Shown here: positions 2,509-25,594 of the stretch, piece by piece
Numbering within the stretch: the first letter of the stretch is position 1
Layout of the letters: each line of letters opens with the position of its first letter
Source: Saccoglossus kowalevskii
Taxonomy: Eukaryota; Hemichordata; Enteropneusta; Harrimaniidae
Assembly (NCBI RefSeq): GCF_000003605.2
Contig: NW_003148271.1
Coordinates: 90,002 to 116,552, forward strand
Reading direction: 5' to 3'
DNA length: 26,551 nucleotides
Notes under the pieces: model-generated
What the model was told of the DNA's origin: nothing
What the model saw: the letters and a program-made list of their open reading frames with translations, nothing else
The model's database searches: none
Position numbers and translations under genes: made by a program

Positions 2509-2623
2509 TTTCTCGCACTGCTGCTAGTGATTCAAACAGACCATTAGTGGAAGGTGTGGTGAAAAATGAAGGTAATCTGGGGCAGTTGGGGTGCATTCGC
2601 GGTTAACCACCTTTAAGGTACGC

Positions 2624-2694: not shown

Positions 2695-2812
2695 AGTAAC
2701 CATGTTACCTTTGAGCAAACCAGGGTAATATTTTTCTAACCTAATCACACGTGTTGTCACAAGGCATCGCCCGCATAAAATATAATTGTGACACGACTCC
2801 AAGTCACCCTCT

Positions 2813-4419: not shown

Positions 4420-4960
4420 AGGCTAAAAAAATAATAAAAAAATAATAGTACAACAACAAGTCTATGGAAAATTTGGCAAGAAAAATACTAGCCAATGTGT
4501 TCTCAAATAATACTACATGTACCATACTATAGAATAACATAATTGTATAAAAAATCCTAAAAAAATAGTACAGCAACACAGTGGCGAATCCAGCAAAATG
4601 TATTGGATTCCCCAAGCTTCGCTTAAGATATACGGAGCTTAAATCGCAGAGAAGCTATGCATAATCCAGATAATATGAATAGTCATGTGTTTGGGAGGGG
4701 CCATGGCCCCCCTGGCCCCTCTCTGGATCCGCCACTGCAGCAACATATCTAACCAAAATTTGGCAAGAAAAATACTAGCCAATGTCTTATTATTACATGC
4801 ACTGTATTAATCTCAATGTCACTTATAGAATAACATGAATTTTATAAACATATCTAAAATTTGGCATGAATACAAAATACATACATGTACTATATTAATC
4901 TCAATGTACCTTTAAACAGCATAAATTGCATTAACCAAACACTATACTCAAGCAAAATAA
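4420..4960. repeat. Degenerate tandem repeat of about 100-120 bp, split by a hAT MITE
   Basis: The word AAAATTTGGC begins at 4468, 4755 and 4856. It is followed in the first two copies by an almost identical run to GCCAATGT, and in each unit by similar AT-rich text containing ATAGAATAACAT. Removing the 159-bp hAT insertion and one 8-bp duplication, the first spacing is about 120 bp and the second 101 bp, so three imperfect units are visible, with a possible partial unit before 4468. It is noncoding; the minus ORF across 4615-4364 is a consequence of the AT-rich repeat. Confidence 0.55.
4579..4737. mobile_element. hAT-type MITE with perfect 8-bp target duplication
   Basis: The element begins CAGTGGCGAATCCAG (4579-4593) and ends CTGGATCCGCCACTG (4723-4737), giving 15-bp terminal inverted repeats with one mismatch. 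CAGTGGCGGATCC ends are typical of hAT-superfamily elements in many animals. It is flanked by a perfect 8-bp direct duplication, CAGCAACA, at 4571-4578 and 4738-4745, the hAT target-site length. Length is 159 bp and no coding frame exists, so it would have been moved by a transposase encoded elsewhere. A palindrome GGGGCCATGGCCCC lies near its right end. The unmutated duplication suggests a fairly young insertion. Confidence 0.85.
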
Positions 4961-7073: not shown

Positions 7074-7105
7074 CACCTCTATGCATTGACTAATGCATAG
7101 AGGTG
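7074..7105. repeat. Perfect 14-bp palindrome with 4-nt loop
   Basis: CACCTCTATGCATT (7074-7087) is followed by the loop GACT (7088-7091) and the exact reverse complement AATGCATAGAGGTG (7092-7105). The stem is short for a microRNA precursor. It may be a relic foldback or a templated inversion event. Confidence 0.7.
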
Positions 7106-7160
7106 GGTAATGTACTGTGTGGGGTATGTACTTTATTAGTAAACATCTTTTAATTGAGGG

Positions 7161-7241
7161 GAACACGTGTAGTGGCATGAAGCTAGGCGATTAGGTGCCG
7201 TATGCGAGCGCCGGTTCGAGTCACGCACGCAGTACGTGTTC
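7161..7241 (+). repeat. tRNA-like relic, possible SINE head
   Basis: GGTTCGAGTC at 7213-7222 matches the pol III B box (T-loop) almost perfectly. An A-box-like TAGTGGCATGAAG begins at 7170, about 40 bases upstream. GAACACGT (7161-7168) and ACGTGTTC (7234-7241) form a perfect 8-bp end-pairing stem. However, the distance from T-loop to the 3' arm is too long, and T-stem and anticodon-stem pairing are poor, so it is not a working tRNA gene. A degenerate tRNA copy or the head of a tRNA-derived SINE is likeliest. Confidence 0.35.
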
Positions 7242-7433
7242 ACTATAATTAGACGTAGTATTTACCTTGCCGTTTATTCGGTGTTATTTGCTTACTTTAC
7301 TTCCTATGTCGACAGCAACTACATGTATGAGTTTTAATTATTAAAAGATGGTTGCAAGTATTGGCTATGGCTGTGACAAAAAAATGTATGCAATAAAGTG
7401 AGAACAAAATGAACAGCGAATAGAAGGAAAACT

Positions 7434-7439
7434 TTTATT
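7434..7439 (-). terminator. Candidate polyadenylation signal AATAAA (minus strand)
   Basis: TTTATT on the plus strand reads AATAAA on the minus strand, about 340 bases beyond the stop codon of the minus-strand gene ending at 7777. It would give a 3' UTR of ordinary length. Only the hexamer was recognised. Confidence 0.35.
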
Positions 7440-7460
7440 TACATGTGCAACGTTACATAG

Positions 7461-7522
7461 GCGTGCGTGCCTGCCTGCCTGCGTGCCTGCCTGCGTGCGT
7501 GCCTGCTTGCCTGCATGTGTGC
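7461..7522 (+). repeat. Imperfect TGCC/TGCG microsatellite
   Basis: Tetranucleotide units mixing CTGC, GTGC and TTGC run for about 60 bases on the plus strand. The array creates an artificial Cys/Leu/Pro/Ala-rich open frame (7445-7669) that should not be taken as a gene. Confidence 0.8.
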
Positions 7523-7776
7523 ATTCTAGTCTTAATGTCTTTAATGTCTGCTTTATGTGGCAAAAGCTGGCCAGGTCTTCACTTTCACAACAAAAACCTA
7601 GGTACTCGTAAAAGACGACATAATATAGGCAGAGATATGCAAAATATTATTCACTCTCAAACATTTTAGTTTAAAATTATAACTACAAGTTGTATTCTTG
7701 CCTTTGTGACTAAATATGTATCACTGATGTACTGAACACTAGAAAAACAATAAATATTTATCTCATAAATGACTAA

Positions 7777-9750
7777 TCACATTGATGTTGGAGAAAGAAA
7801 ATTCATTTCCGGTTTTGAAATAAACCGATTTTTTACTTTCTGGGCTCCATCTACAGCTGAAGTCTTTGGGGGGTTATCAGGGGGAAAGAAATCCATGTCT
7901 TCTCTCTGGTGAAAGAAACTCTTTTTATTTGCTGTGAAGCCCCCTTGGACAACTCTTTGCATCAAACCCAGCTGTCTTGCATCATCCTCTCTGACACACG
8001 TGTGCTCAGGTGGATGCTGAAACTCAGGACCAATTCCAAACAGTTTCTTCACGTTGGACTGAATTAGGACTGGTACACATTTCATATTCTCCTCTTGCAA
8101 ATCATGTCTGGCTCTGTCAGTGAAAATGAAATGCATGTACATTATGAAAGATTACAGAAGATGTACATCCTATTTCATGTATATACACGGGTTTGGACTT
8201 CAGATTCTAGAAAGCATCCAATTTCAAGACTAAAATTATTGCAATTGGCTTAGAGTTATATATAGGAATACTATAGGGAATATTTTAAAGATACAAAACA
8301 GAAAACTCAGAAAATGCAAGTCCTGTATATGACAAGTTCATATGGAGTATACAATAAGTAAATATTTAGGTTCTACTTTTTGAACATTTCAATCTTTCTG
8401 CCAAGCTTAAACACTGATATACCAATGTTTATATGCATGTCTAACTTAAGCCTGTTCACAATAGAATAATTTTATAAAACAAATCTTAAGCCAGCTTCAA
8501 ACCTATGAGCTGATGTAACAAATATACTCCACACATAAACAACACTAGACATCAGACAGCGAATCACATTTAGTCCAGACACTATGAGATCAGTACAAGA
8601 TAACAAATTCACGTACATGATTCTGTAGTAAACTGTAGGTCAATAAGATCAATAAACAACAATAACTTGCACACGAGGTAAATCAAAATTGAAAACACCT
8701 TGCACACTACATCGACGTCATCACTCTGCACAAGATCATGAGGCTAACCACAGGGGCTTGTCAACTGATGGCGAATCCCCTAGTTCGAGTGGTCAGTTGA
8801 CAAGCCCATGTGAGGCTGACCAAAGGCAAGAGGTACGAATGTGAATTGGACAAATCAACTTGAATTGATTGTGAATCGGTGAAGCAGCAATGCTTAAAAT
8901 GCCTGGGGAGGACACACTCACCAGGTAACATGCAATTGTTTCAGTGAAATCTTAGTATGGAAATAACATGCAGCAACCTATAATTACATGTATATATAAC
9001 CAACCTTAATCTTGGTGAATGCTTTGGAGTGCACACTGGAGATGGATTCTCTGATACTGGAGTTTGCTGCCCACTTGCTATAACATCAACATCAGGGAGC
9101 TGAACTTTAGAGCCGTCGGGTAAAGTGACTGTAGCAAATTCCATTTCTTCATCCAAAAGAGGAAAACTATGTTGACGAGATAGAAAACGTGACTGTGTGG
9201 CTGGAACAACAGTAACTTCATCCTCAGAATCGGTCACTGGTGGTTCATACATGTGTGCTGTCTCATCACTTGTGGATATCAGCTCATTTTTTAAATCTAG
9301 GAAACGTGATGTCTTTTCATTAGTATCATCTGCGCTACTTTTTTGGCTGATCCCGTAAGGCATTACTTCAGTATGCGAAGGAGATGGAGACACATCAGCA
9401 TGTGAAAGGGATTTCTTTTTCAAGAACTCATCTCTCTGTTTCTCTACCCCTTTATCTTTATTGGTTGACCTGATTCTGCTATCAACAGATCTGCTTCTTG
9501 GGGTCTTCCTTCGGACATTAGTTGAGGGTTTACTTTGTTGAAGATCCCTCTCTTCCTCCTCAAGAATAAGTTCATATTTCCGAGGATGTGCTCTCAATAT
9601 ACTGCTAAAATCAAACATTTGCGATAAATTACTACGAGATGAAATTGGCGATTGAACTTTATCATCTATGTCATATCGCTCTGGTCGAGTGATTTGCATT
9701 GTTGACTGAAGACTTGGAACATCAGGTCCAACATCATCTGCTGTATCCAT
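7777..9750 (-). CDS. p33MONOX/KIAA1191-like protein (candidate), 360 aa, two coding exons
   Basis: Exon A has an acceptor TTTCAG ending at 9782 and covers 9781-9005; its donor AAG|GTTGGT starts at 9004. Exon B covers 8113-7777, after an acceptor CTGACAG, and ends in TGA. Phases match: Arg249 is split AG|A. The ATG at 9750 has a strong Kozak context (AAAATGG), so the exon's upstream part is probably 5' UTR; an upstream coding exon is not excluded. The 360-aa product has no signal peptide or membrane segment. It is Ser/Thr/Pro-rich and charged, with an acidic patch (residues 64-68), a basic patch (80-87) and likely phosphosites such as SVDS and RQHSFP, so it is probably largely disordered. The last 12 residues, KPEMNFLSPTSM, resemble the end of human KIAA1191/p33MONOX as I remember it, and the gene sits head to head with ARL10 as KIAA1191 does. 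The gene model is well supported; the family name is tentative, and no enzymatic motif is visible. Confidence 0.6.
8114..9004 (-). other. Intron of the p33MONOX-like gene
   Basis: An 891-bp phase-2 intron with donor GTTGGT and acceptor CTGACAG on the minus strand. It holds a perfect 15-bp inverted repeat (8754-8768 and 8793-8807), listed separately. No other gene is seen. Confidence 0.7.
8754..8807. repeat. Perfect 15-bp inverted repeat inside the intron
   Basis: GGGCTTGTCAACTGA (8754-8768) is the exact reverse complement of TCAGTTGACAAGCCC (8793-8807), with a 24-base spacer. Similar words TGAGGCTAACCACAGG (ending 8754) and TGAGGCTGACCAAAGG (from 8811) flank it as an imperfect direct repeat. 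This could be a tiny foldback element with its flank duplicated. Confidence 0.6.
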
Positions 9751-9781
9751 TTTGTCAGGAGTTCTCAGAAGTCTGATTTTG

Positions 9782-10179
9782 CTGAAAGATATTACCAAAT
9801 AAAATGAAAATAAAAAGCTCATATTTAACTAGCTTTATGGACATGCAATATCAGGATGGAAAACAACCTAATCATTACTCTTGGATTAAACTATTGTGTT
9901 CCTTGTAGTACACATGAATATCACGTGCATACAGCCTACATCACACATGAGTTGTATGCACATGTACATGTATGATTATTGGCTGGGCAAAGTCCAATTA
10001 CCACTCTCAGACAGATTATATCTCAATAAAAAGCACATAATGTAAATAATGTCAGTCACTTTTATTAGATTTGGTTATTTTTAAGTGACTCTATCCAAAC
10101 TTTGATGGTGTATTTAAAATAACAAAATCCATATCTCAGAAATTCAGTTGTCTCAAATTAGCTTGAACATGTTCAACCC
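9782..10179 (-). other. 5' intron or upstream region of the p33MONOX-like gene, left part
   Basis: The acceptor at 9782-9783 (minus strand) implies an upstream exon, so this region is most likely an intron in the 5' UTR. It contains an ACATGTACATGTATG-like palindromic cluster near 9960. No further coding frame is seen. Confidence 0.45.
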
Positions 10180-10366
10180 AAAGAGTTCCTTTTGTACTCC
10201 CATCCCTAAACCTAACTCTAACACTCACTTCCAGTTACCAAATTCATTTGTATATGCCCTCTAGATAACTATAGATGTCCTCAGGGGCATGTATAATTAA
10301 ATGGGGAGTGCTGGAGGGTAGGAGTAGAGTTAGGGTTAGGGATGGGGGGTACAAAAGGAACTCTTT
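10180..10366. mobile_element. Hairpin (foldback) MITE carrying TTAGGG words
   Basis: The ends AAAGAGTTCCTTTTGTA (10180-10196) and TACAAAAGGAACTCTTT (10350-10366) are perfect inverse complements. The pairing continues inward: CATCCCTAAACCTAACTC (10201-10218) pairs with GAGTTAGGGTTAGGGATG (10327-10344) with one mismatch, and GGCATGTATA-like text also mirrors the left arm. Nearly the whole 187 bp therefore folds back on itself around a loop near 10,260-10,283. It has no coding capacity and no clear target duplication. It probably lies in the 5' intron of the minus-strand gene, where a transcript would form a long hairpin RNA. Confidence 0.7.
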
Positions 10367-10662
10367 CCAAAATAGCAAATAGTTTCTGATCATTTGCCAT
10401 ATTTTTTTATTTAAAACAGGAAATTTAACGGAAAACATTTTTAGGACAAATTTTGGGAAAAAACACAGCAAATTGCTGATGTCCAGTGAGCATCTGAAAT
10501 CACTTTATCAAAATTATTGCATCATGTCCCTCATAAATTATTCATACACTCTTAAGTACACTTTTGGGTCACTTTTTACCTTTCGTGTGATGCAACTTTA
10601 GAGTACTAACGTGAATATCCTAATACATGGGTAAGGTATCAATAAAGATTACTATTATTTAA

Positions 10663-10677
10663 CCCCCCCCCCCCCCC
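10663..10677. repeat. Homopolymer run of 15 C
   Basis: An uninterrupted C15 tract. Such tracts are unstable and prone to sequencing error, so its exact length is uncertain. Confidence 0.9.
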
Positions 10678-10695
10678 GCATATTCTCATAAGTCG

Positions 10696-10747
10696 ATGAC
10701 ATCATGGAACTATAAACCATGATGACATGATAGTTCCATGATGACAT
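10696..10747. repeat. 18-bp inverted repeat with one mismatch
   Basis: ATGACATCATGGAACTAT (10696-10713) pairs with ATAGTTCCATGATGACAT (10730-10747) at 17 of 18 positions. CCATGATGACATG in the loop repeats part of the arm, allowing alternative foldings. It lies just after the C15 tract. No target duplication was identified. Confidence 0.6.
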
Positions 10748-10839
10748 AGAACACTACATTATGCAAATGAAATTATTATTTTTTCAGGCAGTGGAATGCC
10801 AACTAAAAATCACCCTTTCACCTAAATGAGCATACTAAC

Positions 10840-11358
10840 CTCGACAGATGAAATCCACTAATTTCTACAGCATCACAATAATGTCAAAGCAGACTGGGTG
10901 TATTTTGAAAATAAATCATCGACATCGTCATCGAGGTGAAAAAAAAGAGCAAACGGTGACACAGTTCACATACAATCAATTGTGAGTACATTTGTGACTT
11001 CTCTTCGTTGTGGTATCTCATACTCTATACGTAGACATCGAGGAGATATGTGAATTTGCATTGTTCTGCTAAATTTGCACGAAAAACAAATCACACAGCT
11101 AGAAATTCCACCATTACAAAATGGAACTTGGTTGAATAAGCAGCTGTCACGTGATCTCCGACGATTCGGCTGCATCCTTTTTCGCGGAAACAAAAATAAA
11201 AACAAAAAATTGTACACAAAAAGATTTTATTTATGTTCAATATTCTATTAAATAAGAAATGATCATATAATTTAGTGTACTATAATTAAAATTGAAATCT
11301 ATAGAGATACTCCAGCAATCACCACATAACACTCCTGGGAAGAGGTTATTTAGACAAT
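10840..11358. promoter_or_regulatory. Candidate bidirectional promoter between the p33MONOX-like gene and ARL10
   Basis: CpGs reappear here after a CpG-poor stretch and continue into ARL10 exon 1. A palindromic E-box/M-box, TCACGTGA, lies at 11147-11154. The sequence AATATGGCGGC at the ARL10 start (from 11356) fits the YY1 consensus, which in TATA-less housekeeping promoters often overlaps the initiator ATG. No TATA box precedes ARL10. For the minus gene, a possible noncoding first exon could end at donor GAG|GTTAGT (last base 10840); this is only a candidate. The two coding starts are 1.6 kb apart, with transcription starts probably closer. The arrangement fits a shared housekeeping promoter. 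Confidence 0.45.
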
Positions 11359-14300
11359 ATGGCGGCGCAGTGGTTCAAAAATCTGGGGGTCGCAGGTAAA
11401 ACTGTTGTTGTTCTCAGCGCAGGCGTAGCCGTTGCTGGTGTAGGCTGTTACTTGTTTCACAGAAATAAGGATTCATCCGAAGATGATATGGACGGTACAT
11501 TTGAAGTCCTGACGACGGTAATAATTGTCTTACTCACAGTTTCGATTCCAAAAGTTTGTGTATTGATATATAAGTGGCCGCACTCGTTATGCGTTGTACT
11601 ATTGAAATTACACAAATAGCAATACTAGTAACTAGTTAAGTAAGTTTCTTATTGAAACTCTGTCCTTCTATTAAACCGCATGCCATTCTAGTTGTCCGTG
11701 AACTGTCACTAGTTGTTACTCATGGCAACCATATACATGAGAATATTAAGGTATTTGAAAGACATCAAAATTAGAATGACATATACATATGCTATAGAAA
11801 CAGCAACCAATTAATTAAGGGGGTGTGTGTGTGGAAAAGGAAAATGTTCACGTCAACTCAGAACTGCATAATACATGGTTACTAAAACTTTGCATAATAT
11901 AATTGGGAAGAATTGAAATAAAAATAGTCATCAGGCATTCTCGCCGCCGAGTAGTTTATTGAATTACTAAAAATAGTACTGATGTATCTAATAGAATGTG
12001 TGTGAACTGTGGAAAAAGTTCATGCTCCAGTTGAGCGGAATTCAAGATGACGCAACATATGATTCGTGTGTCACCGCTGCTCAAAATGACCCGAAACAAA
12101 GTTAAACCATTTTCAGTTCATTGCCAGAAAATGATTGTCTTATCATTGAACAACATTCCGAAAATATATTATCATGAATGAGCTGTCTCGCTTCGTATAA
12201 TTTGTGAAACAAACAAACATACAAAATGGCACCACCCATTGACTGGAAGTGCACCATTCTCAAACTCTTGGGGTATACCGGTACTAGTATATAGATTTCT
12301 TCCATATTCTTCTATATATACATGTACACATGTTATCTATAGAGCTCACTTTACGAGCGGCCTTCAGTTGCTCTTGCTATTATTGAATTTGTTCAATCTA
12401 ATCAGCAATCTCTTTGTTTTGCTAATTAATAAGTGGGTGGTTGCAGTTGCTATGTCACTTGAAGGCTTGCCATGAGCATAGAAAATGTAGAGCTTCTGAG
12501 CGAATTTGAATTTGAATGAAAGCTGATGATTAGTATTATTCGTGTTCAGGCTACACCTAGTACCGGTAGGGGCTAAGATTTAAGCTAATCTCATATGCAT
12601 ATTGGCTAGACCCAATTGCGTTCATGCACAGGAGGGAAAAACATTTAGCACAGGCTAATGCACAATCAAACTTGTTAAGAATACAGATATATACAAATCT
12701 TCTTTTAAGTATTACTCAGTACAGTAAACTGGAAGGTATACATGTTAGTTCTATGGTTATAAAACAATGCCAATTCAGAAAGTGTAGATTGCGAAATAAC
12801 AGGAAGTAACAGTCCATTTTTTCCCCCCAAGAAATGAATAATGTCTTGATGTGCTCATATTGGATGTCACGTTGGAAATGGGATACCAAAATGAATACTT
12901 GTGAATATAATAGTAAATTTGTTTCTTTAAGAAAATATTTTTTCCTTATTTACTTTTCTGTGAATGATAATGTTTTAAAGTTCATGCCTTACATCGCCTT
13001 CACAGATTTGTGACTTTTACCTCTTGAAGAATGAGCACTGTTAATTTCACTTTTAAAATCTCTATGCACAACATGGAAAAATGGACGGTATGTCACACCC
13101 ACAAATATGGACATACATGTAGTTTGTATTATTTCAACTCTTTGACAACTGCAATGCCGATGTTTACACCAGAAATGTTTGCGTGAGGATTACCTATCAC
13201 TAAGACAACAGTGTTACCCAAGTACTTCCATATATACGCAAATAACAAGATATAAATTACTGTGGAATAATTTATTTTTGTTGGAATTAATTTTCGCTGA
13301 AACGGCTTTTTGGGCGTTTTGTATGTAATTTATTTGTATGATTTTTGATGAGTTGAATGTGAAATATAGGAAAAAAGTATATTCGCTATTCGCTGGATTT
13401 TATTTTCACTGAATTATCCTTTCAGCGAAAATAGTGAAAACAAATTCCAAGCGAAAATATAGTATTCTACAGTATATGTTTTTGCAGTATTTCAAAAAAC
13501 AGCCTAGACAACCCAACACACTTAATTTGATATACACAAAGATTATTTTGTAGCAATTAAGAAACATGCCTGCATCAGTGTAATATTTGTTATGTCGGCT
13601 GCATTGAGAGTTAGGACAATGTGAGAGGCAACAGCAGCTAAAGTGTTGTAGTGTTTTTTTCATTTGCAATTAAAAATAATAAGACAAATGGACAATAAAG
13701 TGTAAAGTCTGTAATTGGTGAAAATCTTTGGTCATATACGTTTGGTCATGATTCATAATTTCTACTATTATAGCAATGACTCGGTCACATGCCCGATGCA
13801 ACACGTACATGTACATTTTTTTTGTACATGATTCATTCACAATTCATAATTCTTGATATTGCTACAGCCAGTAGTTCTCGCTATTTAGTTTGTGATGTCT
13901 TCGATATTACAAAAACAATGCAAAAAGTAAAAAGGTGTGTTAAAAATATTACAAATAAGATAAATACATTGAAATGAAACTAGGAGTTTTTTATTTACCA
14001 GTATAATACCTTTTACAATAGTCTAAATTATCATTGTAGATAATCAAATGTGCACTTGAAGATGTCAGCAATTTGTCACAAGACATATCACCACGTCAAA
14101 TTATTGTAATTATTCATTTTTGTTTAAATTCATATTACCAGACCCGTTTAACAGCATAATTCGTGCAGGGGTTTTTCTGAACAGGGGTGCAGCGCCCTGA
14201 TACTTTCAGCCGGCGCCCTCTTACCAAATTGCTGATTGACCTTTAAAAGGCATAAATATATTTCTTGAGCAGCGCACTTTTGTGCTACCGTACAACATGC

Positions 14301-17180
14301 AATTTTTTCAAATCTATTTTCCTCCATGAAAACTTCCCAGCAACACTAACTGACAATGATTCTGGACACCAAATACACTCAAAGTACTCTAAAAATATTT
14401 AAATGGCAATAGATACACAGTTAAAACGAAGCAGAAACCTTCCGATATGGTCGACCCGACATGTTGTTTTTGTACTAGCTTGGTCGCTCCGCTTCCTCGC
14501 CTGTGTGTGCTCCCTGTTGTTCATTTTTTTCATTGTTTGTAGTCAAAGGTCACAACCCAAAAACATGACATCAAAGTAAAACCTTTTATTTATTTATTGA
14601 CTTGTGTAGTGACCTTTGAAATAGTACACTGTATGATCATTTGTTTGCCCATTTTACAGGAAGACGATTCGCCAGAAAAAAGAGTTCTTGTACTGGGACT
14701 GGATGGTTCTGGGAAGACTAGTATTTTATCATGTCTAGCAAACCAAGAAAATAAAGAAGAAACTAAGCCGACTGAAGGCTTTCATGTTATTGTAGTGCAG
14801 TCTGAGGGTGTTACACTCAATGTTTGGGAGAGTAAGTTTTCTTTAGCTTTAAGCATTGAACGGCAGAGGGTTTAAAAAGGGGGGGCAATATTATCATACG
14901 TGTACCACCAAGTCTACAACTTTATCGCTGTGTTCCATAGTGAAACTCGAAACATATGTACTGATATTTTCTAATTTATTTTGCTTATAAACATGAATAA
15001 TACACCAAACTGTGCATATCAATAAGTTTTGGTCATCACCTACCTTCTCACAAGCTTCATTTGAGCTATATTATCATTTATTTATCACATGTAATTTTTT
15101 GTACCTCAAAATTCTCTACCAAAACTATGCTAAAATGGCTACCAGAGTGATGCATCAGTTGATCATCACGTCAAATAAACCACAAGTGTGATATGCCAGT
15201 AGTTTATGTTTTACATGTAATGGCATACCAAAATGCAAGCCATGTAAATGATTCTCTATTTGAGAAAATTACCTTTTTTTTGTTTCTGTATTTTCCTTGA
15301 TACTACCTCATACTAAAATTTATATAAATATTTTTGACAGGTATACAACGAGATATTGCGCAATTCACAATATTTATGCCCAAGCCACAGACAAGTGCAT
15401 GTATGAAGTGAATTCAGTAATACTGTAATTCTGAAATATGGAAATAATTTTAAAGCAAGTGCTTGCTCCAAAACATCGCTCTGATCTTTATCAGCTAAAT
15501 ACATACAGCAGATACTGTATTTGCTCTGATAGTAGTGCATCCCGAATAAAAGTGCATAAACACCAACATTTCATGTTTATTGTATACTGGTTCCTATTTT
15601 AACCATAGAAACACCTGTTTAATTTGCGTAAGTGCATGCACTACTAATGGAACTAATAGAGCAAATAGAGCATAGAAAAAGTATTCAACACTTTTCATGG
15701 TGATATAACAGCTCCTTGTCAAAACTTACTTACCCATTCACGCTAGTCACAATAAAGCATTGTATTTTCAAATAGGCGTCAACAATTATGAAACACCAAA
15801 ATTGTACTCTAACTTAGGCGTCATGAAAGATTGACATTTTCCAAACGTGACGCCTAAATTAGAATACTAGCGGAGGTTTACCTCAGTTTGCTTGGCCTAA
15901 AATTTTCATTTTGTCCGCAGTTGGTGGTAGAGAAAATGTACGCTCATATTGGGATAACTTCATCCAGGACACACAAGTTTTAACATTTGTGGTGGATTCT
16001 ACTGATACCAATAGATTTGCACTTGCCATGGATGAACTGAGAAAGGTTTTATCCGATGAGAGGATGGATGGAGTTCCAGTTATAGTTGTCGCAAATAAAC
16101 AGGTAATCATGTCAACCTTTTGAATTTTTTTTTTAAACCTCATCTGTAAATCTTGATTGATTAGAAAAAATGTAAGGTTAATTATAATAAACATAAGAAT
16201 ACTACAGAATCTCACATGCAGTAAGTTATAGTGTGTACAAGAAAGAAGTACTGGGTAGTGCAGCCACCTTTTCAAACATCACATACATGGAACATGCCTT
16301 ACTTTTAGGTATTGACTCTATATCTTGCAATAGAAGATAGAGTCTTGCAATAGAAGCCTTTTCAGGAATGCAAATTTCCAGATTTTATTAATTTTCCAAT
16401 AAATTGTATTTCGAGGCATTAAAAAGGTTGACTGATTATTAATGATGAGGTATGGTTGTCCTAAATTATTTCAAAAATCGGGGTTTTAAAAAGTGTCATA
16501 AAATGCAAACTTTCTTTAACATTGTGCTGCATGGAATTATTTTAAAAATAGTGATTTCTGAAAAATATTAGGGACAAGTTTCTCAAAATATGTCACTAGA
16601 ACACACGCAAGAATGCTTTTTTATGGTGCGATGGGACAATAGCTTAAATATTTTACATAATAGACCAATTAACACTGTCATGTGGTTTATGACAAACTCT
16701 CAACAATTATGAGTACCGATAGGCTTCTACATTAACGAAAGTTTGTATTGTGAAATGAAAACCGTCCAACAATGTAAAGAAACAAAGGCAACTTTTGAAA
16801 CATATTTAATTTTGTTTGTGTTGCACACTAGTTGATGCCAGTATACAGCCTTGGATGGGCATCATTCTTAGATTATTACAGATTCTATTTTCTTGTACCA
16901 TTCGTTTTATATACCCCAATGTGATCATTTCTATGCAAGGGATTATTTTCACAGGATTCATTTGTCTGATTTACAATAAAAGTACTATTTTCATTGCTTT
17001 TTTTAGGATTTACCTGGAGCAAAGAATGCAAGTGAAGTTAGAGAATTTTTAGATCTTCAGTCAGTTGCGAAAAACCGAGAAATCCATGTAGTTGAGACAC
17101 AAGTACCGCTTAATTCTACACAGTTAGGCGTCAAGACTCTAGAAGAGCTGCTAAATAAACTCACAAAACATTCAACATAA
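11359..17180 (+). CDS. ARL10: ADP-ribosylation factor-like GTPase, ARL10/ARL9 type, 228 aa, four exons
   Basis: Exons: 11359-11517, 14660-14831, 15921-16102, 17007-17180 (stop TAA). All introns are GT...AG and phases fit (0, 1, 0; Ile111 is split). The 228-aa product has a hydrophobic segment at about residues 15-33, ending in basic residues, and Ala rather than Gly at position 2. It should therefore be anchored by a membrane helix, not by N-myristate. The GTPase domain follows: P-loop GLDGSGKT (66-73), switch I PTEGF (90-94, Thr91), switch II WEIGGR (109-114), N-K-Q-D (169-172). Switch II has Arg114 where Arf proteins have catalytic Gln, and the C-terminal SA-type motif is replaced (ETQV, 201-204). 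EIGG and an N-terminal membrane helix are features of vertebrate ARL10; ARL9 shares EIGG. The substrate would be GTP; partners are unknown. Complete and apparently functional; the choice between ARL10 and ARL9 names is less certain. Confidence 0.93.
11518..14659 (+). other. ARL10 intron 1
   Basis: A 3.1-kb phase-0 intron (donor ACG|GTAATA, acceptor TTTTACAG). It holds a TA-flanked MITE at 13258-13474 and a short GC-richer patch near 14,165-14,225 of unknown origin. Another in-frame-compatible donor GTACAT lies at 11494 but would give the wrong phase for exon 2. No other gene is seen. Confidence 0.75.
13258..13475. mobile_element. MITE with CTGTRGAATA ends and TA target duplication, in ARL10 intron 1
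   Basis: The left end reads TACTGTGGAATAATTTATTT (from 13258). The right end, reverse complemented from 13474, reads TACTGTAGAATACTATATTT. Both ends are followed inward by TTTTCGCTGAAA-like text, so inverted similarity extends over about 50 bp. The flanking TA at each end is consistent with a TA target duplication. Length is about 217 bp with no coding frame. Ends of the TACTGTAGAAT type followed by ATTTTCG are, as I recall, widespread in marine invertebrate genomes. Confidence 0.65.
14832..15920 (+). other. ARL10 intron 2
   Basis: A 1.1-kb phase-1 intron (donor GAGA|GTAAGT, acceptor GTCCGCAG). A 25-bp imperfect inverted repeat (15801-15870) ends 50 bases before the exon 3 acceptor. Nothing else is recognised. 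Confidence 0.8.
15801..15870. repeat. 25-bp inverted repeat just upstream of the ARL10 exon 3 acceptor
   Basis: The arm at 15801-15825 (core CTTAGGCGTCA) pairs with the arm at 15846-15870 (core TGACGCCTAA), about 20 of 25 positions matching, with a 20-base loop. A further GGCGTCAAC copy lies at about 15775. A transcript would place a stable hairpin next to the branch-site region. It may be the remnant of a small element. Confidence 0.6.
16103..17006 (+). other. ARL10 intron 3
   Basis: A 904-bp phase-0 intron splitting the N-K-Q|D motif (donor CAG|GTAATC, acceptor TTTTTTAG). Near 16,314-16,344 the words GACTCTAT and ATAGAGTC form an 8-bp palindrome, and TTGCAATAGAAG occurs twice there. No other gene is seen. 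Confidence 0.8.
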
Positions 17181-17185
17181 ATAAA
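17180..17185 (+). terminator. Candidate ARL10 polyadenylation signal overlapping the stop codon
   Basis: AATAAA begins at the last base of the TAA stop, and a T/GT-rich stretch follows at about 17,218-17,236, as expected of a downstream element. It would give a 3' UTR of only about 20-30 bases. Another AATAAA at 17857-17862 offers a longer UTR of about 700 bases. Confidence 0.35.
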
Positions 17186-17439
17186 CTATCAAGATATGAT
17201 TCATTGTTCACCAAGTACATGTATATTTTTTTGTGGGATTACTTTTAAACTGTAAAAAATATCTTAATTGCACATTGCAAGGGCTTTTGGGGTTTCATCA
17301 AAAATAGTAAAAATCTTTATCACAGTTAGTGAGAATGAGAGTTTTCTTGTAAAGGGACTTAAAAGGTGTACATACATTTCTGTATAAAGGATAGGTACCA
17401 ATCTGTTAATTTCAGAAAACTTTACCATGATAAAAGTAG

Positions 17440-17520
17440 TAACACACCACCTGCTGAAAGCCTCCACGGATCACCAAAGTGAATAAGAAAAAAAACCAGG
17501 GTCAGCAGGTGATGTTTTAA
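17440..17520. mobile_element. Mini-element with TTAA-type end, copy 1
   Basis: The left end reads TAACACACCACCTGCTGAAA. The right end reads TCAGCAGGTGATGTTTTAA, so CACCTGCTGA (17449-17458) and TCAGCAGGTG (17502-17511) are a perfect 10-bp inverted pair. TTAA is present at the right edge (17517-17520) and degenerate at the left. The left end is clearly similar to the element at 18002. About 80 bp long and noncoding. Confidence 0.45.
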
Positions 17521-18001
17521 TGCACTAAATTTATGGTATATGATAGTTATAATTCTCAAAGAAGAATGGCTGATTTTGAAAACCTTGGTGACTGACGCGC
17601 ATAGATGTCACGCTTAATTGGCATTCGATTCGTAAGTAAAGTTTTTTGAAATCACGATATTTCTGTTATTTTGATACTCAATTGGTCATGTGATAAAAAG
17701 GTTATCACCTGATATTGCTATTTGTAGAGCTGGTTTATGCTCATGGTGGTTATAGGATTCATTGTCCGCACACTTTGGTTTATCGATAATACTCTCCTCT
17801 GACATCACTTGTATTAACTATCTCTATGAACAAGTGATATATTGTCATGACCTCATAATAAATGCTTGATTATTTGATATATTGATTTTTAATGCAATTT
17901 TTCATTTTTTTTAAACTTTGTTTGAAAATATTTTTTTTTAAATGTATTTTTTTTTTTTTTCAAATCAGGTATACATGTATCATTTCTCCATAACCAAATG
18001 T

Positions 18002-18106
18002 TTAACACATTGCCAGCTGAAAGCTTTCACAAATAGCTGAAATGAATGGGGAATTTCAAATAGCTGAAATAAATGGGAAATACAGTGTCAGTAGGCTGTG
18101 TGTTAA
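18002..18106. mobile_element. TTAA-flanked mini-element (piggyBac-like MITE), copy 2
   Basis: TTAA lies at both edges (18002-18005 and about 18103-18106). The left end TTAACACATTGCCAGCTGAA and the reverse complement of the right end (TTAACACACAGCCTACTGAC) agree in TTAACACA, GCC and CTGA. TTAA duplications are the mark of piggyBac-type insertion, an inference here. The interior contains two tandem copies of a 27-bp unit beginning CAAATAGCTGAAAT (18029 and 18056). Noncoding. Confidence 0.5.
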
Positions 18107-19703
18107 GTTACCAATTATTAGCTCAGGACATTGTACCTTTTATGTCTTCCAAAGGATTGTATTTTCAAGCTGACTATAATTGAGTAACAGTCACCAACCC
18201 CTCTGTAGTTCAAGAAGAACACTGCTCAATATGTTGTCATAGCCATCTTTTATACACTAGGCCAACTATTTAAATCTTGTTAGCTTGTCACCAGAGCTTT
18301 ATGGAGAGTCTGAGAATTGCTGGCATCATAACTCATTTAATTAATCTATACCCCGTTTGCTGTGCAGTTCATTCCTATTGATATGTGTTGTGTACATGTA
18401 TGTATATTTTGTTATTTGATGCAATCTCTCCAGAAAGTGTATATCTACATTGCAACAGCCATCTAAAAGTAGTTGCTTTGTGCATATTCTCATTTGGAGC
18501 AACTCATAGCATGCACACACACGGTAATGATAATAGGAGCATGCCTTTCCCTCCAGTTGCATGTGGCAATCTAAAGCCGACACATCACTGTACCTTGACC
18601 ACTAAGATATTTGGTTTGTACATTTCCTTTTATAAATACGAGAATTTGTACATGTAATTACAGTTTAATTATGTAATAATGATTTAAATGTTTATCACTG
18701 GTTGTATCACTTTTATTTCAGCTTTTTTGTATTTGTAGCCACACTGGCTTATCATGTACCAATATGTTCCCCACGATTCCATGTTCTTTTCAAAGAACTT
18801 GCCACTTTAGAGATACTGCACAGAACATAACAACTTTTAATCCGATTAAAATATAAACATGGGTACTGTTTGCCCCTTTCTTACCTCTAAATACACATAA
18901 CATACCATATTTGTTCTATTAGTAGCAAATGCTAACTGATGGAAGTGCGTCTAAAGTCAAAGTCATATTTAATATGTAAACTGTTGATTTACATTCAATT
19001 TTAATAAAGCAAATACCACATTCTGGACATCTAATGTACGGTAGTTCATACCAGAAATCCTAATTGCTTGTTGACAAAAGATATCCCACAGTTTTAATAT
19101 GCATACAGCAAATGAGGAGCCCACACATTTGTGGATAATCACTAATAACAATTTTCATATTTGAAATTTAGTTCTGAACTCTTCATGTGTTAAAGTCGCT
19201 CAGGTAATCAAACGAATTGCTATGGAGAAGATAAAAGTACATGTGTATTATTAGAGAACACTTGTGTTAATTGAATGTGTAGACTTTCAACAGTCCCTCT
19301 AGCCTAATGTTTTTTTTTTTAATTTAAAATGCTGCAAATGCATTATCACGTTTGATTAAATAATTTTAGTTAAAAAAATAATAAACACTAGGACAGAGGA
19401 ACTGAACTGTTGACAGTCTATTGAAAATGCATAGTGTAGATTTCCTGACATTGAAATCTTCTAAATTTCAGTTTTAAAGTATTAATTATTAACTAGTTAA
19501 CATTTATAAATACTGGAAATTTTTGCTGTAAATCCTGAAATATTCTCATCTGTTTTGGTGTTAATTTGTTAATGTATAAATGATTTGATTTGTGATGTGC
19601 TGTGGGAAAACCATGAATAAAATAAGATTTGGTTAATCCTCAATCATAGTTTGTCTCTGATTACACTTGATATTAGGTAACAAAATCTGTAATTGGATAG
19701 TGA
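18107..19703. other. Noncoding stretch, no gene seen
   Basis: AT-rich, CpG-poor DNA 3' of ARL10. Short frames on both strands show no recognisable protein. T-rich tracts occur near 19,310. AATAAA words (for example near 19,616) could serve an extended ARL10 3' UTR but nothing decides this. Confidence 0.4.
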
Positions 19704-19850
19704 AAGTTCTACCCCAAAGCACAGTCCCTCAACACCCTCAAAAAGGCCCCTGGAATGCTGCAGTTGGGGTTCGCAGCAGTCCAGGGCGCCACGTATGCCA
19801 ACTTGTCAGGCTACGTCAAAGACAGCCAAGGGGCGTGTTCAGATTCACAT
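19704..19850 (+). other. GC-rich, coding-like block of unknown origin
   Basis: A sharply GC-richer patch of about 140 bp stands in AT-rich surroundings. After two adjacent in-frame stops (TAG TGA, 19698-19703) the plus-strand frame stays open to 19937. It reads KFYPKAQSLNTLKKAPG, then MLQLGFAAVQGATYANLSG from the ATG at 19755. The composition looks like real protein rather than random AT-rich translation. A possible acceptor, GCACAG, precedes TCCCTCAAC at about 19,735; no strong donor follows. The word APG followed by an AAVQGA-like stretch faintly recalls the start of the MUL1/GIDE domain, but that is a guess. It could be an exon, an exon fossil or a retrocopied fragment. Confidence 0.25.
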
Positions 19851-20422
19851 ACTTTAAACATACTTCTAATCTTTGCAGATTTGGTTGATGCAGTAAAAAT
19901 ATGCTTTCAATGTCATGTGATAGGTATTAAATATTAATCAAATGACGAAGCATAGACCCCATTGTATAGGAAATTGCATTTTCACAGTGGCGATGCCAGC
20001 CATTTTGCATACGAGGGAGGAGATTTAAATAACCTTTTCACTATCAGTTCCCTCTTCACAAGTTCACAAAATAGTACGGTACAATTTATAGCCAATATTT
20101 TTGAGTAAAAACTGAAAGTTTACTCAAATTTTGTCTGTTGGCTCCAAAATTAGGGTTCATTTCCAAGAATATAAAAAAGTGCAGAAAAATTTGGGCAAAA
20201 TTGTCTGGTGAGGAAAAGGTTAAATAAATCCTATTGTATTTTCTACAAAAACCCACCATGGTTGCTGCGTGCGTATGTTATGCAACTCCCTTTGTGCAGA
20301 TGAACTATAGACCAATGATCAGTTCAGAAAACTCTACTTGGATGTACATTGTGCAAAGAACATGTGCATGTGTACTTACATGTACAGGCCACTCGTTTCA
20401 CTCTGATGCATGTTCCAATATT

Positions 20423-21131
20423 TAGCTCCGCTGTCGACTTTGTTGAGCGGAGCTTATCATTGTCCGTCGTCGTCCGTGTCAATGTTTTACTTTTTCGACT
20501 TCTTCTTGAAAACTACAAGCCTGAATGTTTTGATACTTGGTGTATACATGTATGTACCTTGGGGAGACCTCTCTTAGATTTGTTCATTTCATTTTGGTGA
20601 ATATTTTTGTCATTTTTGATAAAAAGTAATTTTTTCGACTTCTTTTTAAAAACTGCAAGTCCAATTGCTTTATTACATATATAGGTACAACATGTGGATC
20701 TCTCTCAGATTTGTTCATTTTGTAATGATATCTTCAATTTTCTAATTTTAGTGAATATTTTTGTCATTTTTGGTAAAAAGTGATATTTTCAACTTCTTGT
20801 TAAAAACCGCAAGTCCACTTGCTTTGATATTACATATATAGGTACTACATGTGGACCTCTCTCAGATTTGTTCATTTTGTAATGATATCTTTAATTCCCT
20901 AATTTTGGTGAATATTTTTGTCATTTTTGGTAAAAAGTGATATTTTCGACTTCTTGTTAAAAACCACAAGTCCAATTGCTTTGATATTACATATATAGGT
21001 ACTATATGTGGACCACTCTCAAATTTGTTCATTTCATGATGATATCTTCAATTCTCTAATTTTGATGAATATTTTTGTCATTTTTGGTAACAAGTGATAT
21101 TTTCGACTTCTTGTTAAAAACAGCGAAGCTA
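20423..21131. repeat. Tandem repeat of about 157 bp bounded by TAGCTYCGCTG inverted ends
   Basis: The word TCGACTTCTT (or TCAACTTCTT) recurs at 20495, 20635, 20789, 20946 and 21103, a period of 140 then 154-157 bases. Each unit contains TTTGTTCATTT and GAATATTTTTGTCATTTTTG. The block starts TAGCTCCGCTG (20423) and ends CAGCGAAGCTA (21131), a nearly perfect 11-bp inverted pair. A hairpin AGCTCCGCT/AGCGGAGCT (20424-20432, 20446-20454) sits at the left end and CAGCC/GGCTG (21135-21148) just outside the right. No coding frame runs through it. This looks like a non-autonomous DNA element with internal tandem repeats; superfamily not recognised. Confidence 0.7.
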
Positions 21132-24100
21132 TCTCAGCCGAGAGGCTGCTTGTTTGTAGATAACTTTGAATTGAATAGCTGAAAACAACTTTTGTCCCAT
21201 TCATCACGAGTAAACAACTTTCGTCACATTCTTCATGAGAGAACAAGCTTTGTCTGAAACTGGACAGGAAGTTGGTCAGTTTAAAAAACAGAAACTAACC
21301 AATTCTAGAGGCATACTTAGAACAACAGCAACAAGACAAAGAGTTGTATAACTTTTATATAACCATGCTGTTGTGGGCAGACTTTTAAAAAACACCACAA
21401 ATCCAAATTTATGATGTGCAACGCAGACTTTGTGTCTTGGGTGATGTATACATGCACATTTTGCCATTGTACATGTACTTACGGTACTTTCTTTCTATGC
21501 ATCACCACTACCAATATTTAATGATAAAGCAATTTTCAAAACATCTTATGTTGTCACCTAAGTATGCAATAACCTAGACTAAAGTCTTTACATTAGAATT
21601 GGTTCTGAATAGTCCATATATCAGAGGAAGATCAAATCTCGGAGCTATATGCTCATGAAGAATATCCGTCTTGTAATGAATAACGCGTGTGCAGAGAACA
21701 AATTCATTTCAATGTTGTAAAAAAGGACTGCGTCTAAATGGAAGGTGTGTCACACGGTTACACCCACCATCAAACAGCCAGGTGTAGTAAAGTATCGTAA
21801 AAAGTACTTGTCTGCTGTACTCCACAACGAATGTCCAAAACAGGGACTTGTGTTATGGAGCCGGTTCATTTGTCAGTGTGTGTTTCTGTTGATCTGACAT
21901 TATTTCGAGCATTAATGGATTTCACTCAAAGACAAGTCATAAAAGTTACCATATACATGTACATGTCAATTTTTTTTCATTTCATTGATCTTTTATCGAC
22001 TGGCAGCTACTTTTGTCCCAAAAATTTAAGAACCATTTCAAAGGCATGCATAGGCTGATTGGCATTGTTTAGTTATTTTTAGATTTGGATAAAATTTATT
22101 TGATTGGAGATAAATCTTTGATATGGAATGTCAGTATAATTTTTCTGATAAAACCTTTGATTTCACATTCAATTTTCCATGAAAACTCAACACAACATGT
22201 GAATTTACCATGGAAATGCATCAGAGCATGCCCTGTTGTGTTTGATTTCATGACAGTGTATACAAGTTTCTATTAGGAATTCTACCATTGTGTAATGGAG
22301 AAGTGACTGCTGAATTATTAAACCTAGGATGGTGAAGATGTTGTATGAACTGCTGAAAAATAAAGGCAGTAATTCAGCCATACCAAATGTTTAACTCAGG
22401 CTGGACAACTACTGAAATCAAATCAAGTAATTTTTGAGTAAGGTTTAAGTTGCGAGAAAAAGCAGAACAGTATAAAAGCATTTCCTCAAATGTACAGGCT
22501 GAAAGTTATCAAACTCAGTGAAATCATTATCGTCAAAACAATAATATACATAATCACAGATGCAACAGGTACATGTATATGTTAATATCTGAGGCAGAGA
22601 CTTGATTCCCCTCCCTCTTCCACATAAAATACACTACTGCTCATGTAGAAATTCTACCACACACACACCTGGCAGACTTTAGCTGTCCCAGGGATTGCAT
22701 GAACTGCCTAGTCTGGAAAAGGTGAAAATTTAAAGTATCTACCAGTATTTACTTGCCAAATGATGGGAAAAAAAAAATATTTGTATTATGATAATTAGCA
22801 CATTAATAGCCATAGTGATTTGTCTCCCTAAGCTAACAGCAACATTCAGCTATGACTGTCAATGTGCTAAAGTTGAATTCCACGTTCCCACTGATTAATC
22901 ACTATGAAAAATGATACAATCAGTTGGTTTGGCAACAAATCCTAAAATACTGAAGGTCATTGTTTCTAATCATCAAATCAAACATTACTCATTGTCACAA
23001 ATCACAACTCAACATTCGTATGATGCTGATACATGGGACATGGTTTTCTATGAAACATACAAAGTGGGATAGCAACTGTATAGCAAAATTTAAATAATTA
23101 CTGTAAAGTTCTTGAACGAAACAGATACTCAATTGGCAAATTCCTGTTTTCCAGGATATAATAAAGTTTCTTCACAGGGTACACAAGAACCTTGCACGCA
23201 AGGAATTGTTTGGAGTGTATGTACAGTCACAAATGAATATGACAGATACAATGATATTTGAATTACTAGTAACTAATTCACAACTTCTTTGCTTCAAAAG
23301 ATCAATCATTTGATATGTTTTGAACATACCAGTTTGAAAATTGTTGTACGCTGCACCAGACTATACTATTACCAATACATGCATGAAAAACATTTCAAAA
23401 TATCTGAATTTGGCTGACAACTTGTCATGCTTTCCCAACTAAAGGAGCACATAGATCAATAAATGTAAAACAAGACATGAATGTTACAGTCCCTGTCATT
23501 TAATTATAAAATACTTGTGTTTAAATAATACATGGAACATCTGCAAACAATTGAATTAATGTGTACTCTATGTGGGTACAACTCATCATAAAGTGATTTC
23601 CCTTAATCTGATAACTGAAAACTATCATTGACCCCGGTCCAAAATCTCAAAGTACACAAGTGCAACCAAACTATGTCTCATACATGCTCAAGAAACTGCA
23701 TTCATAAATCTGAATAATCCTTGATGTACCTTTACCGGTAATAACAACTTGACTTTGTTAATTCAGGTCTTTGTATATTACCAGGAACTGGGTCTGTTCC
23801 AGCATCACCACTATAATTCCCATCAAAATGTAGCCCTGACTCCCCTCTACATTTTTCTACTGAGATTGGTAATGATACGACCCATTTGTCACTGATTCAG
23901 AGCATTACAGTCTAAGCTAATTATTTATTCTGAGCATGCTCAGTTGTTCTCTCAGTGCAGTGGGGAGAGGATGAAAATCATAAAAAAGACCCACTTAGGA
24001 TTTTCAGATCTGGGAAAAAAAATTATGTGCATAAGCGACTGAGACTGGTTCATCAACCTGCCAAGTTTCATCGATATCTGCTTCAGAATTTCTGAGAAAA

Positions 24101-24783
24101 TGTTAGAGACGTCACAGAAAGAAAATTGAAATAAGAATAGTCCGCCTTTCAGGCTGCCTGAAACAGGGACTAAAAAGAACAAATTTTTCTATTCTTAAAT
24201 GTTGGGGTTTATTTGGACAACAGAATGTTTACCATTTGATTCATAGAAATGTAGTCGCCATTTATAATAAAAAATCCCCAATAGTTGGTACTCGTATATT
24301 GTTGAGCTGAGTTTATCTGAGGTAACTACATGCGCCCTCACATGACAAAAATTGGTTAATCTTTTTTCTTTACAAAGAGCTTGGTAAGGTCAAAAAAAGA
24401 AAGATTTTGCTTCTCGTCCTAGGGATTTTTTTTTCGTATTAAGATTATACTACAACAAGATACAAGTTAAACATTTATTCCATAATACTCTTGAATACAT
24501 GCGTTAAAGCTTGATTTGGAGCAACAAAACATCCCCCGAAACAAAACATTTACCCATTCTATATGTGAAAGACTCTACTATTAAAGAAAATGCATGAGGT
24601 CAGGTTTCAAATTGACAGTCAAACACACAATGACAATAAGCAAAACTATTTTTTTTTTGGCCAAAGCAGAAATTGGGACAGAAAAATGGACACACAACCT
24701 AAGAATGGTATTGTTTTAACAAGTTATGAACTAATAGAATGAATTTCTGAACATTTGAATGATCTCAGGACCAGTGTTTACTT
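21132..24783. other. Noncoding stretch, no gene seen
   Basis: About 3.6 kb of AT-rich, CpG-poor sequence. Frames on both strands are short and of low complexity. I recognise no exon, RNA gene or well-bounded repeat. ACATGT palindromic words recur (for example near 21,956). NOP16, expected from vertebrate linkage, was looked for and not recognised. Confidence 0.4.
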
Positions 24784-25080
24784 AATCTGATTAAAATCTG
24801 ATGTAAGTAGAGGTTAAATGTCCATCACTGGTGTACATCGCCCAAAGCTCTATGCAAGTTGTGTTCAGTTCTTGCTGGTCCAACAATCAATCAAAACTGA
24901 TAATACACTTAGGGTTTCTAGCAAGACACACTCAGATTCTAATTGGTTGACAAATCTCATCAGAGGAAAGCTCCTAGAACATGACTAGTTGGACCGATGT
25001 AGTTAAAGGCGATGTACACCAGTATCCAAAATTAAGAGCAGCTAGAGCCTCGACATAAAGCAGATTTTAATGAGATTGGT
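24784..25080. mobile_element. Long imperfect palindrome, probable foldback MITE
   Basis: Three nested inverted pairs line up. The outer pair is AATCTGATTAAAATCTG (from 24784) with CAGATTTTAATGAGATT (about 25062-25078). The middle pair, ACTGGTGTACATCGCC (24827-24842) with GGCGATGTACACCAGT (25008-25023), is perfect over 16 bp. The inner pair is GGTCCAAC (24877-24884) with GTTGGACC (24988-24995). About 300 bp thus shows mirrored structure with no coding frame. Target duplications were not identified. Confidence 0.6.
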
Positions 25081-25415
25081 TTTTACATTGAGAAGACGCT
25101 GCCAAATGCATGCTTACCCGGTAATTTCATGCAAATGCTAGTACATGTAGAATCCTATTGTTGTGGTGGTTTAATTAAAATTACAGGAATTGTCAGTCAG
25201 AAAAACTGGTACTGTAGTAAAAAGAAATTACTGTTGACCACACTAAAAAACATTATTTCAGATTTCTGATTCCTGGGAACAAAAATGCATGACAAATCAT
25301 ACTTGACTGTTCTTGCGTGGATAGGATGAGATGTTCACATCATGTCACATCATTTCATTAACAGCAATAAATTAGTAATTACACAGAGAGGAGTATATAT
25401 TGTCTGTATGTTGTT

Positions 25416-25594
25416 TCACTTTTTTATCTGGCCAGGTCCTTTAGAAGCTCCTAGTGCTATGCCCATGATCAGAGCTATTACTGTAAATCCTTGTGCACCT
25501 ATACGCATTCTCATCATCATCTGTGAGTTTCTAGTGTTTCCTTTTCTGAACTGTACAAGGCCCCATGTTAATGCAGTGGTCGTTGCCAGCATAC
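25416..25594 (-). CDS. HIGD2A: HIG1 domain family member 2A, last coding exon (5' exon outside window)
   Basis: The exon follows a TTTCAG acceptor, begins with two bases completing a Gly codon, and ends in TGA. It encodes 58 further residues starting MLATTTALTWGLVQF. The run SQMMMRMRIGAQGFTV matches the HIG1-domain signature between the two membrane helices and is very close to the same region of human HIGD2A. The helices are at about residues 2-16 and 38-51 of the exon product, and the tail is GPGQIKK. HIGD2A proteins sit in the mitochondrial inner membrane and assist cytochrome c oxidase (COX3 module) and supercomplex assembly. The N-terminal part is missing: every possible G|GT donor up to 26,551 was examined and none follows an open frame that resembles the family. 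A minus-strand ATTAAA at 25175-25170 could be its polyadenylation signal. Confidence 0.92.

What the first reader, a model, noticed from the sequence alone, without database searches (positions are those of the whole stretch)
7777..25594. Conserved gene neighbourhood: p33MONOX-like, ARL10 and HIGD2A
The sequence shows an ARL10-type GTPase, a HIGD2A exon and, head to head with ARL10, a gene whose C-terminus resembles KIAA1191/p33MONOX. As I recall, human 5q35.2 carries KIAA1191(-), ARL10(+), NOP16(-), HIGD2A(+) in a row. An apparently invertebrate window with the same three genes, and the same head-to-head KIAA1191/ARL10 pair, implies linkage retained since an early bilaterian ancestor. The link also supports the otherwise weak p33MONOX call.
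Basis: partly seen in the sequence, partly recalled or inferred. Interest (0 to 1): 0.72.

Follow-up and report, generated by a model that had tools for sequence, protein, structure and literature searches.

The report
ARL10-HIGD2A gene neighbourhood in a non-vertebrate
Two mitochondrial genes that are close neighbours in mammals are also neighbours in this probably invertebrate genome, and the gene back to back with one of them may be a very diverged relative of the human neighbour; this is an ordinary case of gene order surviving over long evolutionary time.

Summary
ARL10 and HIGD2A are real and lie about 8.2 kb apart. ARL10 (+) has four exons with good splice sites, 228 aa, an N-terminal hydrophobic stretch and no switch-II glutamine; clear ARL2 and ARL3 exons lie elsewhere in the same genome. 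HIGD2A is represented by its last exon (-), the only HIG_1_N match found in the visible assembly. Cattle and sheep gene lists read ARL10, NOP16, HIGD2A, CLTB, so retained linkage is well supported. Two details differ from the claim: NOP16 was not found in the window, and HIGD2A runs opposite to its human orientation as recalled. The head-to-head gene (-) is real (two coding exons, 360 aa), but the p33MONOX call stays uncertain. The protein has no Pfam match at E up to 10, so I do not file it in PF15302. Its last 32 residues, however, gain 13.6-13.8 bits against PF15302, in register with the profile's C-terminus, where 15 shuffles gained at most 5.1. I put a divergent KIAA1191 orthologue at about 60%. 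The two genes face a CpG-rich stretch that looks like a bidirectional promoter. Other invertebrates could not be searched, so 'since an early bilaterian ancestor' is inference.

The parts
11359..11517 (+). ARL10 exon 1 (ATG, N-terminal hydrophobic stretch TVVVLSAGVAVAGVGCYLF)
   Evidence: splice model; hydropathy 2.08 over 19 residues
14660..14831 (+). ARL10 exon 2 (P-loop GLDGSGKTS)
   Evidence: tblastn with recalled human ARL10 8e-7
15921..16102 (+). ARL10 exon 3 (EIGGREN switch II without Gln; NKQ)
   Evidence: tblastn with recalled human ARL10 4e-13
17007..17180 (+). ARL10 exon 4 with stop codon
7777..8113 (-). last coding exon of the p33MONOX-like gene; the last 32 codons resemble the p33MONOX C-terminus. 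An acceptor two codons further in (8107) also fits.
9005..9781 (-). large exon of the p33MONOX-like gene; ATG at 9750
10801..11600 (.). CpG-rich stretch between and over the start of the two divergent genes, candidate bidirectional promoter
   Evidence: CpG observed/expected 0.84-1.33 in 300-base windows starting 10801-11501, against 0.56 for the whole window and 0-0.22 in windows starting 9701-10301; other CpG-rich stretches exist in the window
25416..25594 (-). last exon of HIGD2A; the intron before it splits a codon

Best explanation
This is an ordinary protein-coding stretch of a non-vertebrate animal in which ARL10 and HIGD2A have stayed close together since the common ancestor with vertebrates. 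The gene head to head with ARL10 is most likely a strongly diverged orthologue of KIAA1191/p33MONOX, a reading that rests on position plus a C-terminal tail and not on membership of PF15302, whose cut-off it fails. The two start sites share one CpG-rich, bidirectional-type promoter, which would make the pair hard to separate. Relative to mammals, HIGD2A (perhaps with NOP16) has been inverted. Shown here: the gene models, the identities of ARL10 and HIGD2A, the head-to-head layout and the CpG peak. Inferred: descent of the linkage, p33MONOX orthology, promoter sharing and the inversion.
For: ARL10: PF00025 1.7e-45; hydrophobic N-terminal stretch and missing switch-II Gln, features stated for ARL10 in passages of PMC8358228 and PMC12722892; groups with recalled human ARL10 at 99% in a seven-sequence tree; clear ARL3 and ARL2 exons sit on other contigs. 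HIGD2A; single HIG_1_N match found in the visible genome. Mammalian adjacency: passages; human 5q35.2 list with ARL10, NOP16, HIGD2A and CLTB. p33MONOX tail: +13.6 and +13.8 bits with two anchors against a maximum of +5.1 in 15 shuffles; an N-terminal segment +4.3 against at most +2.2 in 7. CpG peak between the genes.
Against: The 360-aa protein has no Pfam match at E up to 10 (HMMER's filters drop most weak matches). Whole-length alignment to recalled human KIAA1191 is not clearly above shuffles: 132, 221, 360 and 192 of 1000 reach the score in four settings; hhalign gives probability 0.3%; phmmer without filters gives 2.6-2.7 bits (E 0.004-0.005 for one comparison) on a Pro/Ser-rich piece, not the tail; by plain BLOSUM62 the C-terminal 35 residues are reached by 125 of 5000 shuffles. 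The middle segment is not above shuffles: 1 of 7 exceeds it. The N-terminal tip gains only 1.2 bits. No match in the three minus frames of 7701-11400. The cattle and sheep lists show COMMD10, not KIAA1191, before ARL10. HIGD2A orientation differs from human (recalled) and NOP16 is not found. No second invertebrate was examined.
Confidence: 0.6

Rival explanations
1. ARL10-HIGD2A linkage is ancestral, but the head-to-head gene is an unrelated, lineage-specific or unnamed protein, and its p33MONOX-like C-terminal tail is a short chance or convergent motif.
For: No profile match; no counterpart of the conserved core was detected; middle and N-terminal tip give no support; pairwise comparison is weak.
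Against: The C-terminal match beats 15 of 15 shuffles, runs to profile position 289 of 291, and the gene sits where KIAA1191 sits in human (recalled).
Confidence: 0.36
2. ARL10 and HIGD2A came together here by chance rearrangement, independently of the vertebrate arrangement.
For: HIGD2A is inverted compared with human (recalled) and NOP16 is not seen between them.
Against: The chance of a known neighbour within this window is about 5e-4 (my arithmetic); one HIG_1_N match was found in the visible genome.
Confidence: 0.04
3. The window is from a vertebrate, so the linkage is trivial.
For: Same linkage as in mammals.
Against: ARL10 is only 40% identical to recalled human ARL10 and the HIGD2A exon 58%, and no p33MONOX match was found in the visible genome, where a vertebrate should match PF15302 (inference); the exon-wise search has limited sensitivity and some stretches read N.
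Confidence: 0.03

Closest known systems
Mammalian ARL10-NOP16-HIGD2A-CLTB block (human 5q35.2, cattle chromosome 7, sheep chromosome 5)
   Same: ARL10 and HIGD2A are close neighbours; in human, KIAA1191 is head to head with ARL10 (recalled)
   Different: HIGD2A is on the opposite strand to ARL10; NOP16 not found in the window; KIAA1191 counterpart barely recognisable. The cattle and sheep lists show COMMD10, not KIAA1191, before ARL10
ARL10 (metazoan ARF family; ARL9 and ARL10 are vertebrate duplicates, PMC8358228, passages)
   Same: N-terminal hydrophobic stretch, EIGG motif, no switch-II Gln, 2-residue insert near NRE
   Different: Expected to be the single forerunner of vertebrate ARL9 and ARL10; 40% identity to recalled human ARL10
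HIGD2A
   Same: HIG_1_N domain, 58% identity to recalled human HIGD2A over the exon
   Different: First exon not found in the window
p33MONOX (KIAA1191, PF15302)
   Same: C-terminal tail with KP..N.L.PT just before the stop codon
   Different: No detectable core, no whole-protein match; longer than recalled human KIAA1191 (360 against 305 aa)

Membership tests
ARL10 | Arf-type G domain | tested here: met
   PF00025 1.7e-45
ARL10 | N-terminal transmembrane stretch | tested here: met
   residues 15-33, Kyte-Doolittle mean 2.08 (hydropathy only, no TM predictor run); feature named in PMC8358228 (passages)
ARL10 | no conserved Gln in switch II | tested here: met
   WEIGGREN, alignment; feature named in PMC12722892 (passages)
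ARL10 | closer to ARL10 than to ARL2/ARL3 in a tree | tested here: met
   99% support, but only 7 sequences, 6 of them recalled human; raw BLAST bits are slightly higher to recalled ARL2 (120) and ARL3 (117) than to ARL10 (109)
HIGD2A | HIG_1_N domain closer to HIGD2A than to HIGD1A | tested here: met
   55.9 against 22.5 bits
HIGD2A | N-terminal exon of HIGD2A | tested here: inconclusive
   not found in the window; the stretch to the right reads N
p33MONOX (PF15302) | whole protein over the curated cut-off | tested here: not met
   no match at E up to 10; recalled human protein scores 461 bits
p33MONOX (PF15302) | conserved C-terminal tail | tested here: met
   +13.6 and +13.8 bits; 0 of 15 shuffles reach it, maximum +5.1. 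A plain pairwise test is weaker: 125 of 5000 shuffles reach it
p33MONOX (PF15302) | conserved core (recalled human residues about 80-150) | tested here: not met
   no match to the protein nor in the three minus frames of 7701-11400 (no positive control)
5q35.2-type neighbourhood | ARL10 and HIGD2A close together | tested here: met
5q35.2-type neighbourhood | NOP16 between ARL10 and HIGD2A | tested here: not met
   (Pfam scans had no positive control)
5q35.2-type neighbourhood | same linkage in other invertebrates | not testable with these tools
   the tool states that G000 has no relatives here

The most novel reading that the evidence does not exclude
KIAA1191/p33MONOX is not a vertebrate novelty but an old, fast-evolving animal gene locked head to head with ARL10, and KIAA1191-ARL10-(NOP16)-HIGD2A is an ancestral block kept by a shared bidirectional promoter.
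Probability: 0.45. Interest if true: 0.4.

Novelty: new member of a known kind. Interest (0 to 1): 0.3.

Why it matters
Conserved animal microsynteny is a well-known phenomenon (abstract of PMC8851819). A retained ARL10-HIGD2A block would add one more instance; both proteins are mitochondrial in human (ARL10 in passages; HIGD2A by the PDB molecule name). If the p33MONOX link holds, it would give an invertebrate starting point for a protein that a 2025 paper still calls functionally uncharacterized (passage of PMC12154194).

Tried and rejected
A whole-protein p33MONOX match was sought by Pfam, phmmer against PDB (no hit at E up to 10) and pairwise Smith-Waterman, phmmer and hhalign against recalled human KIAA1191. 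None supports full-length homology; the unfiltered pairwise phmmer score (2.6-2.7 bits, E 0.004-0.005 for one comparison) falls on a Pro/Ser-rich piece and was set aside. The middle and N-terminal tip were tested by chimera and gave no support.

A 25-residue resemblance of the 360-aa protein (8026-8100, minus) to recalled ARL3 (E 0.003) was treated as chance: no Arf profile match to that exon or to the protein.

An upstream coding exon of the p33-like gene was looked for by eye in the three minus frames of 9786-11700 and none was obvious. Relatives in the viral and prokaryote collections: none confirmed. Rfam gave no match at gathering scores, so the 95-base ARAGORN tRNA-Glu at 23561-23655 is unsupported. 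Literature searches for the linkage or synteny listed no paper on it in invertebrates; passages of ten of the listed or related papers were looked at and one more.

tblastn of five recalled human proteins against eight flanking stretches found nothing at E up to 1, but much of those stretches reads N. The NOP16 family search of the genome found nothing; the tool itself says this does not show absence.
Full report
What is there. The window is G000:C3847:90002-116552 of a 572-Mb, 4830-contig assembly. Three protein-coding genes were recognised. On the + strand, four exons with canonical splice sites (11359-11517, 14660-14831, 15921-16102, 17007-17180) give a 228-aa protein that matches Arf PF00025 at 1.7e-45. 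On the - strand, 25416-25594 is the last exon of a HIG1-domain gene (HIG_1_N 1.4e-17), much closer to human HIGD2A (chain 9i6f, 55.9 bits) than to HIGD1A (22.5 bits). On the - strand, exons 9005-9781 and 7777-8113 give a 360-aa protein starting at 9750. Its 295-codon stop-free run exceeds all 200 first-order Markov simulations of the window, whose maximum was 213. Pfam scans with stops read as X found nothing more: frame +1 of the whole window, four further frames of about 1-7500, three minus frames of 7701-11400, and the other frames between ARL10 and HIGD2A. Frames +2 and +3 of 7501-17180, +3 of 1-7500 and part of the minus strand were not scanned this way, and the scans had no positive control.

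ARL10. Vargova et al. (PMC8358228, passages) place the origin of ARL10 in the metazoan stem, say that it has an N-terminal transmembrane region, and that vertebrates duplicated it into ARL9 and ARL10. A 2025 review (PMC12722892, passages) says that ARL10 lacks the switch-II glutamine and describes mitochondrial targeting of ARL10. The window protein has a hydrophobic stretch at residues 15-33 (mean hydropathy 2.08) and WEIGGREN instead of WDxGGQ. By raw BLAST it scores slightly higher to recalled human ARL2 and ARL3 (120 and 117 bits) than to recalled ARL10 (109 bits). But among the eight of 42 Arf matches that became loci, exons elsewhere are much closer to ARL3 (93% identity over 69 residues, C2106) and ARL2 (85% over 54, C3233), and a seven-sequence tree joins the window protein to recalled ARL10 with 99% support. 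That tree is small, six of its sequences are recalled, and long-branch attraction is possible.

The linkage. Gene lists that look map-ordered read COMMD10, ARL10, NOP16, HIGD2A, CLTB on cattle chromosome 7 (PMC7655849, passages) and on sheep chromosome 5 (PMC10376747, passages). An alphabetical list for a human 5q35.2 gain holds ARL10, CLTB, HIGD2A and NOP16, without KIAA1191 (PMC3463597, passages). A zebrafish paper reports HIGD2A near FAF2 and SNCB homologues on chromosome 14, with HIGD2A in reversed order compared with human (PMC6005158, passages). In the window HIGD2A follows ARL10 after about 8.2 kb, on the opposite strand. NOP16 was not detected in the window with a recalled human query (best E 0.35), nor by the Pfam scans between the two genes. 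The visible genome gave no Nop16 match; the tool says that this does not show absence. The stretches on both sides of the window read N, so the rest of HIGD2A and a possible NOP16 to its right cannot be seen. One HIG_1_N match was found in the visible genome, the one in the window, so the linkage is not inflated by copies.

The p33MONOX question. Against: the 360-aa protein has no Pfam match at E up to 10, while recalled human KIAA1191 scores 461 bits to PF15302 in the same library. Whole-length alignment to the recalled human protein is not clearly above shuffles in four settings: 132, 221, 360 and 192 of 1000 shuffles reach the score. hhalign gives probability 0.3%. Unfiltered phmmer gives 2.6-2.7 bits (E 0.004-0.005 for one comparison), but on a Pro/Ser-rich piece and not on the tail. 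In a plain BLOSUM62 comparison, 125 of 5000 shuffles of the C-terminal 35 residues reach the observed score (all). PF15302 has no match in the visible genome at E up to 10 (the tool adds that nothing rang in its controls either), and none of the three minus frames of 7701-11400 matches it. For: to measure window segments against the curated profile despite HMMER's filters, I joined them to human anchor pieces. The last 32 residues raise the PF15302 score by 13.6 bits (98.6 to 112.2; the human tail reaches 171.4) and extend the match to profile position 289 of 291; seven shuffles gave -0.1 to +5.1. With a shorter anchor the gain is 13.8 bits (63.0 to 76.8) and eight new shuffles gave -0.3 to +2.1. 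So 0 of 15 shuffles come near. A segment around PRKYELILEEEE gains 4.3 bits against at most 2.2 in 7 shuffles, weak support. The middle segment is inside the shuffle range (152.3 against 137.5-155.8, 1 of 7 higher) and the N-terminal tip gains 1.2 bits against at most 0.8 in 7, no real support. I do not file the protein in PF15302; I put a divergent orthologue at about 0.6.

How it would work. CpG observed/expected is 0.84-1.33 in 300-base windows starting from 10801 to 11501, against 0.56 overall and 0-0.22 in windows starting 9701-10301. A CpG-rich stretch thus lies between the two divergent genes, as expected of a bidirectional promoter (inference). It is not the only one: windows near 600-2500 and 7000-7500 are CpG-rich too. 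TCACGTGA at 11147-11154 is not significant (0.22 expected); TTTCGCGGAAA at 11180-11190 was picked after the fact. A shared promoter is a plausible reason for the pair to stay together; ARL10-HIGD2A may simply not have been broken.

What is not shown. No other animal genome could be searched, and the animal is unnamed, so the depth of conservation rests on one non-vertebrate against mammals. That it is not a vertebrate is inferred from divergence (40% and 58% identity to recalled human ARL10 and HIGD2A). Literature searches listed no paper on this linkage in invertebrates, within an open-access library only. Animal genomes are known to keep local gene order (abstract of PMC8851819), so the finding is of a known kind.

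Noticed in passing
L018:2451-3539 (contig C3847:32452-33540, about 56 kb left of the window), minus strand: A 363-codon open frame matching somatostatin receptors (SSTR2 chain 7wic, 2.6e-72), a somatostatin/opioid-type GPCR gene.
   Followed up: partly
window 20517-21141: Four tandem copies of a 157-base unit between ARL10 and HIGD2A, 61-94% identical to the reference copy.
   Followed up: no
window 601-2500: Several CpG-rich windows (observed/expected 0.97-1.93 among those listed) with open frames but no Pfam match in the five of six frames scanned; possibly another promoter or 5' exon.
   Followed up: partly
window 8026-8100, minus strand: 25 residues of the p33-like protein resemble the region after the G3 motif of recalled ARL3 (E 0.003), without any Arf profile match; probably chance.
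   Followed up: partly
   Followed up: partly
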